Shown piece by piece: positions 37,381-41,638 of a DNA stretch of 64,000 bases (positions within the stretch are counted from its first letter, which is position 1; every line of letters begins with the position of its first letter). The stretch comes from an uncultured Bacteroidota bacterium (GTDB taxonomy: Bacteria > Bacteroidota > Bacteroidia > Flavobacteriales > Flavobacteriaceae), in contig CAJWUI010000001.1 in NCBI GenBank assembly GCA_913047695.1, positions 310,001-374,000 of the forward strand, given 5' to 3'. The notes beneath the pieces are model-generated. The model was given only the letters and a program-made list of their open reading frames with translations. It had not been told where the DNA came from and made no database searches. A program made the position numbers and the translations under genes.

Positions 37381-38058
37381 ATGAAGGTTCAAATAAATTC
37401 TAATTGGGAAAAACTTCTAAACTCTGAATTTAGAAAACCTTATTTCACTGATTTAGTTGATTTCGTTAAAAATGCATACAGAAAAACTGTTTGCTATCCA
37501 CCTGGTACAGATATTTTCCGGGCGTTCAACGAATGTCCATTAGATGATGTTAAAGTTGTTATTATTGGGCAAGACCCATACCATGGTCCAAAACAAGCTC
37601 ACGGTTATTGTTTTTCGGTTTCCAATTCAATTCCTCATCCACCTTCATTAATTAATATTTTTAAAGAGATTGAAACGGATTTAGGACTCGAGTATCCAAA
37701 AAGCGGTGACCTGACTCCATGGGCAAGGCAAGGTGTCTTTTTACTAAATGCAACATTAACTGTTGAGGCCAATAAAGCGGGCAGTCATCAAAAAATAGGA
37801 TGGGAAACATTTACTGATTCGGTTATTAGAATAATTTCTGAGAAAAAGGAAAATATCGTTTTTATGTTGTGGGGTAGTTATGCAAAACAAAAAACTAACT
37901 TAATAGATAGTCTTAAACATTGTGTTCTGAAAAGTGGTCATCCCTCACCACTGAGTGCAAACAGAGGCTTTTGGTTTGGGAATAAACATTTTAGTAAATG
38001 TAACAGCTACTTAAAAGAGGTAGGTAAAAATGAAATAAATTGGTCTCTAGATAAATAA
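37381..38058 (+). CDS. ung: uracil-DNA glycosylase
   Basis: VVIIGQDPYHGPKQAHGYCFSV; GVFLLNATLTVEANKAGSHQKIGWETFTD; SGHPSPLSANRGF. Confidence 0.97.
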   Translation: MKVQINSNWEKLLNSEFRKPYFTDLVDFVKNAYRKTVCYPPGTDIFRAFNECPLDDVKVVIIGQDPYHGPKQAHGYCFSVSNSIPHPPSLINIFKEIETDLGLEYPKSGDLTPWARQGVFLLNATLTVEANKAGSHQKIGWETFTDSVIRIISEKKENIVFMLWGSYAKQKTNLIDSLKHCVLKSGHPSPLSANRGFWFGNKHFSKCNSYLKEVGKNEINWSLDK

Positions 38059-38205
38059 TTTTATTTTAAATGAAAAAGGAATTCTATTGATTCAGTCGAG
38101 TCAACTTAATGAGAAGGATGTATGTTCATATAAGTTTAAAACAAGTGAATTGATACAAAAGAGTTATAACACTTATTAGTAACTTGCGAATTACAACTAT
38201 TATAA

Positions 38206-38817
38206 GTGAAAAATATATTTGCAATTGCATTATGTTTAATAGTATTTTCTTGTTTTAAAACTGATATAGTTCAATTTGAGAAAAAAAACAAGAATGCCCC
38301 AAGGGACGCGAGTGGACTTCAATACGGAGGAATCGGAGGTATGGATGACAGATCAATAATTTGTAATCCAGCAGGTCTTGGAAGAAAGTTTTGTCGATTT
38401 TTACGAAAATACGATAATACATTTTGGACAGATACAGAAAATTATTATAGTAACTTTTCGGATATTCAATTTTTAAACTCTGTATATTTTATATCCTTCT
38501 TTGATATTAATAATGATGTATCATATTGCAAAGGATGGAGGGCAGGTGAAAATACTTATGATGGAATAAAATGGAATATAGAAATCAAAAGAGATGAGGA
38601 GGATATATTTTGGTTTGATTATGATTACTATGGGACAAGTCAAGAAATTGAATATACTATACTGTATAAATATGAAGTAATTGATAGTTTACTTCATTTT
38701 TCTAGTTCTGCTGATGAAAATTTTATTTTTAGCCCTTCAGAAAAAAATTATTCAAAAGATTCTATTGATACAATTGAAATAATTGAAATGGAAGGATGTA
38801 CTTTTTACGGAGCATGA
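38206..38817 (+). CDS. tandem paralogous lipoprotein, copy 1 (unknown function)
   Basis: Lipobox-like LIVFSCFK; shares FWTDTENYYSNFSDI...YFISFFDINNDVSYCKGW...YEVIDSLLHFS with the four following ORFs; GTG start. Confidence 0.85.
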   Translation: MKNIFAIALCLIVFSCFKTDIVQFEKKNKNAPRDASGLQYGGIGGMDDRSIICNPAGLGRKFCRFLRKYDNTFWTDTENYYSNFSDIQFLNSVYFISFFDINNDVSYCKGWRAGENTYDGIKWNIEIKRDEEDIFWFDYDYYGTSQEIEYTILYKYEVIDSLLHFSSSADENFIFSPSEKNYSKDSIDTIEIIEMEGCTFYGA

Positions 38818-39374
38818 AAAAAAATCTTTTACTAATTCTATTTTTTATCACTTCGTCTTGCTTTAAATCAGACATAGTACAATCTCAAACAGCGAATATA
38901 GATCCTGCTACTATGCACAATGGACAAGTTTACCCAACTGCTCCTCGTAGCTACACAAGTTTTTGTAATGCCCCAAAAAATTGTAAATTTTTATTTAAAT
39001 ATGATTACACATTCTGGGCAAATACCGAAAATTATTCTAGTGATTTTTCAAGTATCAGATTTTTGAATAATGGTCCATATTTTATCTCTTTTTTTAATAT
39101 TGATAAAGATATTTCCTATTGTAAAGGATGGAAAAAAGGAGAAAATGCATCCAATGCGATAAAATGGAATATTAAAATAAAAAAAGATGAGTGGGATGAG
39201 TTTTGGTTTGACTATGATTATTATGGAACAGGTCAAGAAATTGAATACTCCATAAATTATAGATATGAAGTAATTGATAGTTTACTTCATTTTTCAAACT
39301 CAGAAGGCGATTCTTTAATATTCTATCGAACTGATGAAATAGAAGATTTTGTTGATTGCATGTTTTATAATTAG
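38814..39374 (+). CDS. tandem paralogous lipoprotein, copy 2 (unknown function)
   Basis: MKKNLLLILFFITSSCFKSDIVQ; family motifs; ATGA overlap with copy 1 stop. Confidence 0.85.
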   Translation: MKKNLLLILFFITSSCFKSDIVQSQTANIDPATMHNGQVYPTAPRSYTSFCNAPKNCKFLFKYDYTFWANTENYSSDFSSIRFLNNGPYFISFFNIDKDISYCKGWKKGENASNAIKWNIKIKKDEWDEFWFDYDYYGTGQEIEYSINYRYEVIDSLLHFSNSEGDSLIFYRTDEIEDFVDCMFYN

Positions 39375-39429
39375 AGTAGACTAAGAATTAATAACATCAA
39401 TTTAATTAATCTAAGAACAATAAGTAAAT

Positions 39430-40050
39430 TTGAGTCAAAATCATGAATCATTGCAAAAGTTATTAGTCGGCTTTTTTTGTTTAGTTATGTTTTCATGTTT
39501 CAAAGCAGAAATAGTTCAATATAAAACGAAAAATGTAGATCCTGCCACATTTGCTAGTGGACAACGACTTCCTACTAGGCAACAAAGTTATACTAGATTT
39601 TGTGAGCCAGGAGGTTTGGGTAGAAAAGGCTGCAAGTTTTTAGCAAAATATGATAATACATTTTGGTCAGATATCGAAAATTATTACAGTGACTTTTCTG
39701 ATATACAATTTACAAATTGGATATACTTTGTATCCTTCTTTGATATTAACAATGATGTTTCCTATTGTAGAGGATGGAGAACAGGTGAAAATATTTTAGA
39801 TGGAAAAAAATGGGATATCAAAATCACAAAAGATGAGTGGGATGAGTTATGGTTTGATTATGATTATTATGGTATTAGCGATGATATTGAATATACCACA
39901 ACTTATAAATATGAAGTAATTGATAGTTTGCTTCATTTTTCAAATACAGAAGGTCAAGAATTTATTTTCCACCCATCAGATAAAGATTATTCAAAAGATA
40001 TTGTTGACACTTCCGAAATAATTGAATTAGAGGGATGTATGTTCTACTAG
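39430..40050 (+). CDS. tandem paralogous lipoprotein, copy 3 (unknown function)
   Basis: LLVGFFCLVMFSCFKAEIVQ; family motifs; no ATG in frame near the signal peptide, TTG start at 39430 or 39451. Confidence 0.83.
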   Translation: MSQNHESLQKLLVGFFCLVMFSCFKAEIVQYKTKNVDPATFASGQRLPTRQQSYTRFCEPGGLGRKGCKFLAKYDNTFWSDIENYYSDFSDIQFTNWIYFVSFFDINNDVSYCRGWRTGENILDGKKWDIKITKDEWDELWFDYDYYGISDDIEYTTTYKYEVIDSLLHFSNTEGQEFIFHPSDKDYSKDIVDTSEIIELEGCMFY

Positions 40051-40093
40051 TTTTAGGTATGTTTTATAAATTGTACTTGGCAATCACAACTCT

Positions 40094-40672
40094 ATGAAGA
40101 AGTCACTGGTAGCATTACTATGTATTTTAATGTCTTCGTGCTACAAAGCAGACGTAGTACAATATCAGAGCTGGAATTCAGATCCTTTTACGAAAGCAAG
40201 TGGTTATCAAGTTAATCGCTTACCGAGACAATATAATTCATTTAGTGGTGCTAGATTTTTAAGCAAATATGATGATACAATGTGGGCAGATATTGAAAAT
40301 TATTACAGTAATTTTTCAGACATTAAATTTGAAAGACATGGCCCAGTATTTATATCATTCTTTAACATTGAGAATGATGTGTCATATTGTAAAGGATGGA
40401 AAAAAGAGGAAAATATTTATGATGGAATAAAATGGTATATAACCATCAAAAAAGATGAGGAAAACATCTTATGGTTTGATCTTGATTATTACGGAACAGG
40501 TCAAGAAATTGAATATACCACAACCTATAAATATGAAGTAATTAATGGTTTACTCCATTTTTCAAATACAGGGGGTCAAGAATTTATATTCCATCCATCA
40601 GATAAAAATTACTCAAGAGAATTAATTGACACTGCTGATATAATTGAACAAGAAGGCTGTCTATTCTTATAA
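40094..40672 (+). CDS. tandem paralogous lipoprotein, copy 4 (unknown function)
   Basis: MKKSLVALLCILMSSCYKADVVQYQ; near-identical core to copy 5. Confidence 0.87.
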   Translation: MKKSLVALLCILMSSCYKADVVQYQSWNSDPFTKASGYQVNRLPRQYNSFSGARFLSKYDDTMWADIENYYSNFSDIKFERHGPVFISFFNIENDVSYCKGWKKEENIYDGIKWYITIKKDEENILWFDLDYYGTGQEIEYTTTYKYEVINGLLHFSNTGGQEFIFHPSDKNYSRELIDTADIIEQEGCLFL

Positions 40673-40690
40673 TTGAGGTAAACTAAATCA

Positions 40691-41269
40691 ATGAAAAAGT
40701 CACTAGTAGCCTTATTATGTATTTTGATGTCTTCTTGCTACAAAGCAAACGTAGTACAATATCAGACCTGGAATTCAGATCCTGCAACCAAAGAAAGCGG
40801 ATACCAAGTGAGTATATTACCAAGGCAATATAATGTATTCAATGGAAATAGATTTTTACGTAAAAATGATGATACAATGTGGGCAGATATTGAAAATTAT
40901 TACAGTAATTTTTCAGACATTAAATTTGAAAGACATGGCCCAGTATTTATATCATTCTTTAACATTGAGAATGATGTGTCATATTGTAAAGGATGGAAAA
41001 AAGAGGAAAATATTTATGATGGAATAAAATGGTATATAACCATCAAAAAAGATGAGGAAAACATCTTATGGTTTGATCTTGATTATTACGGAACAGGTCA
41101 AGAAATTGAATATACCACAACCTATAAATATGAAGTAATTGATGGTTTACTACATTTTTCAAATACAGAGGGTCAAGAATTTATATTCCATCCATCAGAC
41201 AAAAATTACTCAAGAGAATTAATTGACACAGGAGAAATAATTGAACAAGAAGGCTGTTTGTTTTTATAA
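40691..41269 (+). CDS. tandem paralogous lipoprotein, copy 5 (unknown function)
   Basis: MKKSLVALLCILMSSCYKANVVQYQ; near-identical core to copy 4. Confidence 0.87.
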   Translation: MKKSLVALLCILMSSCYKANVVQYQTWNSDPATKESGYQVSILPRQYNVFNGNRFLRKNDDTMWADIENYYSNFSDIKFERHGPVFISFFNIENDVSYCKGWKKEENIYDGIKWYITIKKDEENILWFDLDYYGTGQEIEYTTTYKYEVIDGLLHFSNTEGQEFIFHPSDKNYSRELIDTGEIIEQEGCLFL

Positions 41270-41293: not shown

Positions 41294-41638
41294 TTATCCG
41301 CCAACACGTTTTATTTTGTGCCCCATATCCTGAAGTATTTCAATTATTTTATCCCTAAAATTACCTTGTATGATTATTTCCCCATTTTTTATACTTCCAC
41401 CAACACCAAATGTATTTTTAAGTGTTTTAGCAAGATTTTTTAGTTCACTAGGACTACCTGAAAATCCTTTTAAAATTGTGACTGTCTTTCCAGCTCGCCC
41501 TTTATTACTAAAATGTGCTTCAAGATTTTGCGAAACAAAAACAGGGGGTAAAATACTTCGGTCTTCCTTAGGAGTGGGTTGAAGATTATCAAATTGAACT
41601 TTTCCTAAATCATTAAGTGAGTTAAATTTCTTTGCCAT
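41294..41638 (-). CDS. translation initiation factor SUI1/eIF1-like (YciH family)
   Basis: GRAGKTVTILKGFSGSPSELKNLAKTLKNTFGVGGSIKNGEIIIQGNFRDKIIEILQDMGHKIKRVGG. Confidence 0.95.
   Translation of the reverse strand: MAKKFNSLNDLGKVQFDNLQPTPKEDRSILPPVFVSQNLEAHFSNKGRAGKTVTILKGFSGSPSELKNLAKTLKNTFGVGGSIKNGEIIIQGNFRDKIIEILQDMGHKIKRVGG

What the first reader, a model, noticed from the sequence alone, without database searches (positions are those of the whole stretch)
38206..41269. Tandem array of five paralogous lipoproteins of an unrecognised family
Five consecutive ORFs of about 187-207 aa share a lipobox-type signal (FSCFK, SSCFK, FSCFK, SSCYK, SSCYK), a variable 30-50 aa segment and a conserved core: (F/M)W(T/A/S)(D/N)xENY(Y/S)S(N/D)FS(D/S)I...(F)(I/V)SFF(D/N)I(N/D/E)(N/K)D(V/I)SYC(K/R)GW...KW(N/D/Y)I...(F/L)WFD(Y/L)DYYG...IEY(T/S)...YEVI(D/N)(S/G)LLHFS. 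I recognise no characterised family. The rest of the window is conserved single-copy genes, so this is the only evident accessory expansion, sitting between ung and a SUI1-like gene. The N-terminal variability with conserved core would fit diversifying surface lipoproteins or an immunity/adhesion-like family; function is inference only.
Basis: partly seen in the sequence, partly recalled or inferred. Interest (0 to 1): 0.7.

Follow-up and report, generated by a model that had tools for sequence, protein, structure and literature searches.

The report
Tandem calycin-like lipoproteins linked to cassettes
Five side-by-side genes in an uncultured ocean bacterium make related fat-anchored proteins, probably small barrel-shaped binding proteins of no known family, and their relatives in sister species sit in arrays of interchangeable gene cassettes whose spacers copy the end of a DNA-recombinase gene.

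Summary
Confirmed: five adjacent paralogues (w1-w5, 38206-41269) with lipoprotein signals, a variable N-terminal segment and a conserved ~137-residue core. No Pfam, NCBIfam, PADLOC or PDB sequence match; PHROGs gave only insignificant ones. The core models (AlphaFold2 pLDDT 83) as an all-beta barrel; its nearest PDB neighbours are calycins (fatty-acid/retinoid-binding proteins), weakly (E about 0.01, TM about 0.5). The 'diversifying' reading fails: dN/dS is about 0.04-0.5 in the variable segment, subtypes persist across species and loci, and w4/w5 show gene conversion. ung and SUI1 abut in 25 of 31 comparable genus genomes; the array is an insertion in one clade, with up to 7 copies. Relatives are patchy (11/38 genus genomes, a few other Bacteroidota).

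Outside the window, relatives lie in cassette arrays: unrelated, mostly co-oriented small secreted genes separated by an ~80-bp spacer whose first ~39 bp equal the reverse complement of the 3' end of a ~350-aa tyrosine recombinase gene in the same genomes. Gene order is shuffled; one family member is present/absent between spacers in two sisters. No integron integrase over cut-off, no conserved hairpin. The window array has at most a spacer scar. Closest known designs: rAID arrays and integrons. Recombinase activity, fold and ligand are untested.

The parts
38206..38817 (+). w1, lipoprotein gene, GTG start, 203 aa; lipobox Cys codon 38251-38253; core 38398-38814
38814..39374 (+). w2, lipoprotein gene, ATG start overlapping the w1 stop (ATGA), so probably cotranscribed; lipobox Cys codon 38859-38861; core 38988-39371
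   Evidence: start chosen by alignment
39451..40050 (+). w3, lipoprotein gene, TTG start (the listed ORF begins at TTG 39430); lipobox Cys codon 39496-39498; core 39637-40047
   Evidence: start by alignment with relatives that begin MRKLF
40094..40672 (+). w4, lipoprotein gene, 192 aa; lipobox Cys codon 40139-40141; core 40256-40669; lacks the Cys pair before the core
40673..40690 (+). 18-bp w4-w5 spacer TTGAGGTAAACTAAATCA; probable scar of the cassette spacer, collapsed between its end repeats TAAATCA
   Evidence: 17 of 18 bases equal the start of the spacer after the matching gene in L036; the collapse is inference
40691..41269 (+). w5, lipoprotein gene, 192 aa; lipobox Cys codon 40736-40738; core 40853-41266; collinear with the last family copy of L036
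40269..40543 (+). 275-bp tract of w4 identical to 40866-41140 of w5: gene conversion
37381..38058 (+). ung, left flank of the insertion
41294..41638 (-). SUI1-domain gene, right flank; abuts ung in most genus genomes

Best explanation
The five genes encode lipid-anchored exported proteins built as an anchor, a variable linker and a disulphide-braced, calycin-like beta-barrel that most likely binds a small hydrophobic molecule at the outer membrane. They are accessory cargo. In this marine flavobacterial genus the family circulates partly through arrays of gene cassettes separated by a ~80-bp spacer. The first ~39 bp of the spacer (the putative recombination site) equal the reverse complement of the 3' end of a ~350-aa tyrosine recombinase gene found in or beside such arrays; the rest looks like a leader for the next gene. 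At ung/SUI1 one clade acquired such cargo; the lipoprotein genes multiplied by tandem duplication and were partly homogenised by gene conversion, while subtypes were kept by purifying selection. Shown: the gene family, exchangeable stalks, Cys co-occurrence, insertion site, copy-number change, selection, spacer arrays, spacer = recombinase gene end, changed gene neighbours. Inferred: barrel fold, ligand binding, membrane side, and that the recombinase moves the cassettes.
For: Core model pLDDT 82.7, all-beta; the first 28 PDB neighbours are calycins. A Cys pair before the core is complete in 35 sequences, absent in 11, never single; at least two Cys in every core. Different stalks: charged, coiled-coil-like in L126, GET repeats in L141. 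Purifying selection and gene conversion. ung and SUI1 abut in 25 of 31 genus genomes. Spacer arrays, changed neighbours, spacer equals recombinase end at six of six gene ends inspected. Family genes lie beside the spacer in L036, L039, L042, L045/L128, L048 and L124. One family gene is present in L039 and absent from L037 between the same two neighbours.
Against: No fold match below E 0.001, TM only about 0.5, and the full-length model failed (pLDDT 32.5). No ligand, expression or activity data. No spacer is detectable in the window itself except the possible scar. The surface-export signal is only partly matched (PMC5080379). Homologous recombination could explain the shuffling.
Confidence: 0.5

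Rival explanations
1. Surface adhesins or receptor-shielding lipoproteins whose variable N-terminus diversifies under pressure from phages, grazers or hosts.
For: Lipid anchor; N-terminal segment 21-55% identical against 61-72% in the core; copy number differs between species.
Against: dN/dS in the segment is about 0.04-0.5 and the N-terminal types are conserved across species. No adhesin family matches.
Confidence: 0.15
2. Immunity or defence proteins: the arrays are a marine counterpart of rAID, and the lipoproteins neutralise toxins of competitors in the periplasm.
For: Same layout as rAID (tyrosine recombinase, co-oriented short genes, conserved intergenic motifs; PMC12247911). Patchy, multi-copy distribution.
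Against: PADLOC gives nothing for the lipoproteins; no immunity family among the Pfam matches of 20 array genes; purifying selection, whereas PMC12247911 reports positive selection on rAID genes. Cognate toxins were not searched for.
Confidence: 0.15
3. For the linked arrays: the spacer is only a shared promoter/leader, and genes are shuffled by ordinary homologous recombination; no recombinase-driven cassette system exists.
For: The spacer ends exactly at a start codon in 58 of 106 cases and its second half is AT-rich and leader-like. Activity of the recombinase is untested.
Against: The first half reaches back to the previous stop codon (exact in 24 cases), occurs without the second half (12 of 106), in some places follows a terminator-like hairpin, and equals the end of a recombinase gene. 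A promoter needs none of these.
Confidence: 0.3

Closest known systems
Bacterial lipocalin-type lipoproteins: YxeF 'slim lipocalin' of B. subtilis (PMC3367933), TP0751 of T. pallidum (PMC7521688)
   Same: Lipid anchor, N-terminal linker (disordered in TP0751), C-terminal barrel; like YxeF, the model has no helix packed on the barrel.
   Different: No sequence match to any such family; tandem multi-copy accessory genes; exchangeable stalks; ten predicted main strands, more like fatty-acid-binding proteins, against eight in TP0751.
rAID arrays of gut Bacteroidales (described in PMC12247911)
   Same: Tyrosine recombinase, co-oriented short genes, conserved intergenic sequence.
   Different: Cargo is mostly secreted proteins and lipoproteins, with no recognised immunity family; the spacer's first half equals the recombinase gene end (not known to me for rAID); homology of the recombinases not tested.
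[quoted passage not shown]
   Same: Shuffled small-gene cassettes separated by a repeated site, linked to a tyrosine recombinase.
   Different: No integron integrase over the TIGR02249 cut-off in 38 genomes; no conserved attC-like hairpin; the site overlaps the 3' end of the recombinase gene, which runs against the adjoining cassette; some cassettes end in a terminator-like hairpin.

Membership tests
Lipocalin/calycin superfamily | Up-and-down beta-barrel of 8 or 10 strands | tested here: inconclusive
   Model with ten main strands, pLDDT 82.7; nearest PDB folds are calycins but E >= 0.0087 and TM 0.40-0.53
Lipocalin/calycin superfamily | Sequence match to a known lipocalin or FABP profile | tested here: not met
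   No Pfam, NCBIfam or PDB sequence match
Lipocalin/calycin superfamily | Binds a small, mostly hydrophobic ligand | not testable with these tools
   Needs protein
Bacteroidota surface lipoprotein | Export signal after the Cys: K-(D/E)2 in C. canimorsus, SDDFE consensus in F. johnsoniae (PMC5080379) | tested here: inconclusive
   K at +3 in 39 of 45 and D/E at +5 in 37 of 45, but no acid enrichment at +4
Integron | Integron integrase IntI | tested here: not met
   TIGR02249: 0 of 38 genus genomes over the cut-off; most matches are Xer-sized genes
Integron | attC sites that fold into a hairpin as single strands | tested here: not met
   Consensus z +0.97 and +0.83; two natural spacers z -1.9 to +1.2
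Integron | Array of shuffled, co-oriented cassettes | tested here: met
   75 pairs, none within one family; 12 of 14 cassette families have different left neighbours
rAID system | Associated tyrosine recombinase | tested here: met
   PF00589 genes of 347 and 352 aa in L208 and L207, a broken one in L198
rAID system | Co-oriented short genes with conserved intergenic motifs | tested here: met
rAID system | Cargo genes are orphan immunity genes | tested here: not met
   No immunity family in the Pfam scans of 20 array genes; most cargo matches no family, so hidden immunity functions are not excluded
rAID system | Recombinase homologous to that of B. fragilis rAID | not tested

The most novel reading that the evidence does not exclude
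These marine flavobacteria carry an undescribed gene-cassette system: a tyrosine recombinase other than IntI uses a ~39-bp, hairpin-free site lying in the 3' end of its own gene to collect dozens of small secreted-protein cassettes, this new calycin-like lipoprotein family among them, making an integron-like platform for extracellular functions in abundant ocean bacteria.
Probability: 0.45. Interest if true: 0.82.

Novelty: new variant of a known kind. Interest (0 to 1): 0.66.

Why it matters
The NS5 marine group is described as among the most ubiquitous flavobacterial bacterioplankton (PMC6013644), and how such small genomes keep changing their secreted proteins is open. A recombinase whose gene end is the spacer motif of shuffled secreted-gene cassettes gives a testable mechanism, and would extend integron-like gene capture to a site without attC hairpins. 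The lipoprotein family itself would be a new calycin-like group with exchangeable stalks.

Tried and rejected
Profile searches of the family: nothing in Pfam, PADLOC or PDB sequences, only insignificant matches in NCBIfam and PHROGs. Weak genome hits in G041, G697, G765, G943 and G1008 include the N-terminal signal region; the two that I read (G765, G943) look like unrelated lipoproteins. The family was not found in phages, plasmids or viral contigs, nor the recombinase in phages and plasmids, nor its site in viral contigs. Full-length AlphaFold model: useless. Diversifying selection: not supported. Integron: two defining features not met. Fragments in G012 and G031 lie at contig ends, so they are assembly breaks rather than proven pseudogenes. 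Rfam on three arrays and on the locus: only tRNAs.

Full report
OBSERVATION. Five + strand ORFs fill 38206-41269 between ung (37381-38058 +) and a SUI1-domain gene (41294-41638 -). Alignment with relatives puts the starts at GTG 38206, ATG 38814, TTG 39451, ATG 40094 and ATG 40691. Each begins with a hydrophobic signal and a Cys followed by (F/Y)-K. Pairwise identity is 51-61%, and 92% for w4/w5. No other copy is in the assembly. The finding is real.

WHOSE GENOME. The clade with the array at this site includes a genome (G010) whose contig of 99,341 bases matches in length and content a contig of SCGC AAA795-G10; its ung is 98% identical to the window's. That single cell is published as the NS5 marine group (PMC6013644). 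The window most likely comes from an uncultured NS5-type marine flavobacterium (inference).

DISTRIBUTION. The family is found in the window's genome and ten other genomes of the genus, 11 of 38 in all, and not in the other 27, many of which are incomplete. Outside the genus it was found, among 400 genomes of the family, in two further genera (g273, g336; other hits there were weak). A phylum-wide draw found only the own genome. Five genomes around a Saprospiraceae MAG carry it. The pattern is patchy, as expected of accessory genes; binning errors in single MAGs cannot be excluded.

INSERTION SITE. In 25 of 31 genus genomes with ung and SUI1 on one contig, they are convergent neighbours -2 to 111 bp apart (distances taken from the coordinates). 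The array lies between them in G000, G010 and G017, and evidently in G028 and G031, whose contigs break in or at the array. L036 (G010) and L039 (G017) hold seven copies together with other small genes; L037 (G028) holds five. G013 has a different 3.5-kb insertion at the same junction. Elsewhere in the genus the family lies at other loci, for example four in tandem upstream of a gene that I read as alanine dehydrogenase (L040).

EVOLUTION. The core tree (42 sequences) groups w1, w2, w3 and w4/w5 each with counterparts from other species, including L040 and L041, whose arrays are elsewhere in the genome. Window copies 1-3 are collinear with L036 copies 1-3 (90.7% over 1,887 bp), and w5 through SUI1 with the last L036 copy (92.2% over 2,282 bp). 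dN/dS between orthologues is about 0.04-0.5 in the variable segment and about 0.1-0.4 in the core; the 16-codon signal peptide sometimes reaches 1-2, but from one or two synonymous differences. A few near-identical pairs give higher, unreliable ratios. w4 and w5 share 275 identical bases (40269-40543 = 40866-41140), while the segments before have dS 0.75-1.04. This is gene conversion and conservation, not diversification.

PROTEIN. No known family matches. The core is preceded by different stalks: a charged, coiled-coil-like one in L126, GET repeats in L141, a Gly/Ser-rich one in L133. A Cys pair just before the core is either complete (35 sequences) or absent (11), and every core has at least two Cys, as expected for disulphides in an exported protein. 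AlphaFold2 on 45 aligned cores gave pLDDT 82.7 and pTM 0.76 for the core of a homologue (L143): ten main strands, a short C-terminal one, no helix. In Foldseek against the PDB the first 28 matches are fatty-acid-, retinoid- and SAHS-type calycins, E 0.0087-0.082, TM 0.40-0.53. I read this as a probable calycin-like barrel. Calycins typically bind small hydrophobic ligands, and bacterial lipoprotein examples exist (YxeF, PMC3367933; TP0751, with a disordered N-terminal part, PMC7521688). Ligand binding here is inference.

LOCATION. After the Cys the family has K at +3 and D/E at +5 but no acid enrichment at +4. The C. canimorsus surface signal is K-(D/E)2 and the F. johnsoniae consensus SDDFE (PMC5080379). 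Which side of the outer membrane stays open.

THE ARRAYS. Reading upstream regions showed that family genes in sister genomes share an upstream element with unrelated neighbours. A sequence model of it matched at E <= 0.001 in 37 of 38 genus genomes, 29 times in the window's genome and up to 36 times in others, often in clusters. In the fetched arrays small genes, mostly with signal peptides by eye, stand head to tail with this element in the gaps. Of 106 elements, 58 end exactly at a start codon, and in 24 the first codon of the element is the stop codon of the gene before. Across 75 gene pairs separated by an element none belongs to one family (60 clusters in all); 12 of 14 cassette families seen in two or more genomes have different left neighbours, and 9 of 10 different right neighbours. 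This is what cassette shuffling would give.

THE RECOMBINASE. The first ~39 bp of the element, TAAATCATCGGCATATCCTCTTCATTAAGTTCAGGGACT, are the reverse complement of the 3' end of a ~350-aa tyrosine recombinase gene (C-terminus PELNEEDMPMI-stop). Apparently intact genes lie in L208 (G000) and L207 (G017), a broken one in L198 and further copies or remnants in L185, L186 and L196; all six inspected 3' ends carry the site. Where an array gene adjoins, the recombinase gene runs against it. It matches PF00589, but Xer models only weakly and the integron integrase model far below the cut-off; no genus genome has a match over that cut-off. The element forms no conserved hairpin. By its defining features this is not an integron. 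The published description of rAID (tyrosine recombinase, co-oriented short genes, conserved intergenic motifs; PMC12247911) fits the layout, but recognised immunity cargo is missing.

LINK TO THE FINDING. Family genes lie next to this element in L036, L039, L042, L045/L128, L048 and L124. In L039 one family gene sits between a DUF3500 gene and a 176-aa gene, with spacer sequence on both sides; in the sister L037 the same two genes are joined by a single spacer without it: gain or loss of one whole cassette, at the ung/SUI1 locus. In the window no element is detectable in the array, but the 18-bp w4-w5 spacer (40673-40690, TTGAGGTAAACTAAATCA) equals in 17 of 18 positions the start of the spacer after the matching L036 gene and then runs into ATG. 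The consensus element has TAAATCA near both ends (13 of 38 spacers keep both), so this looks like a spacer collapsed between its end repeats (inference). The window array is best read as cassette cargo that expanded in place and lost its spacers.

WHAT IS NOT SHOWN. Activity of the recombinase, use of the 39-bp site, the fold, any ligand, the membrane side, any fitness effect. Homologous recombination between spacers could also explain the shuffling. Whether the cassette system exists outside this genus was not tested (caps reached). Literature searches found no description of it, but the library is partial.

VERDICT. Real, accessory, not diversifying: a new lipoprotein family with a probable calycin-like core, and cargo of what looks like a recombinase-linked cassette system. 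The family alone would rate about 0.4; the cassette link raises it.

Noticed in passing
L190 (G000:C8:1-14000), L195 (G017:C2), L196 (G028:C1), L197 (G031:C10), L207 (G017:C1): Cassette arrays: unrelated small genes, mostly secreted, separated by an ~80-bp spacer that runs from stop codon to start codon; gene order differs between genomes.
   Followed up: partly
L208:20-1063, L207:6478-7536, L198:10612-11653; remnants in L185, L186 and L196:8503-8598: Tyrosine recombinase genes whose last ~12 codons, read in reverse complement, are the first ~39 bp of the cassette spacer.
   Followed up: partly
L042:1825-8203, L045 upstream of 8741, L200 minus strand: A second spacer version carries GAAGAAAAACACGGAGTAGAGATATTG after the site, which would encode EEKHGVEIL-stop: it may be the end of another gene caught in the spacer.
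   Followed up: no
L196:6950-6977, L196:8475-8500, L195:7660-7684, L195:11120-11147: Several cassettes end in a terminator-like hairpin (ACCCTCC...GGAGGGTTTTTT) directly before the site.
   Followed up: no
L119:1980-4778 (G013:C54): A different 3.5-kb insertion, with 258- and 674-aa ORFs, occupies the same ung/SUI1 junction in another species.
   Followed up: partly
L127:155-2046 (G012:C27): Two adjacent ORFs next to a family gene, one with an integrase arm domain (PF17293): possibly a split integrase of another type.
   Followed up: no
L137 (G493:C68:42852-43227), L014 (G019:C16): Family copies with an in-frame stop, or in two pieces: decaying copies exist in other genomes.
   Followed up: no
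window 38081-38122: Between ung and w1, 42 bp are 74% identical to the 3' end of w1: perhaps the remnant of a lost copy.
   Followed up: no
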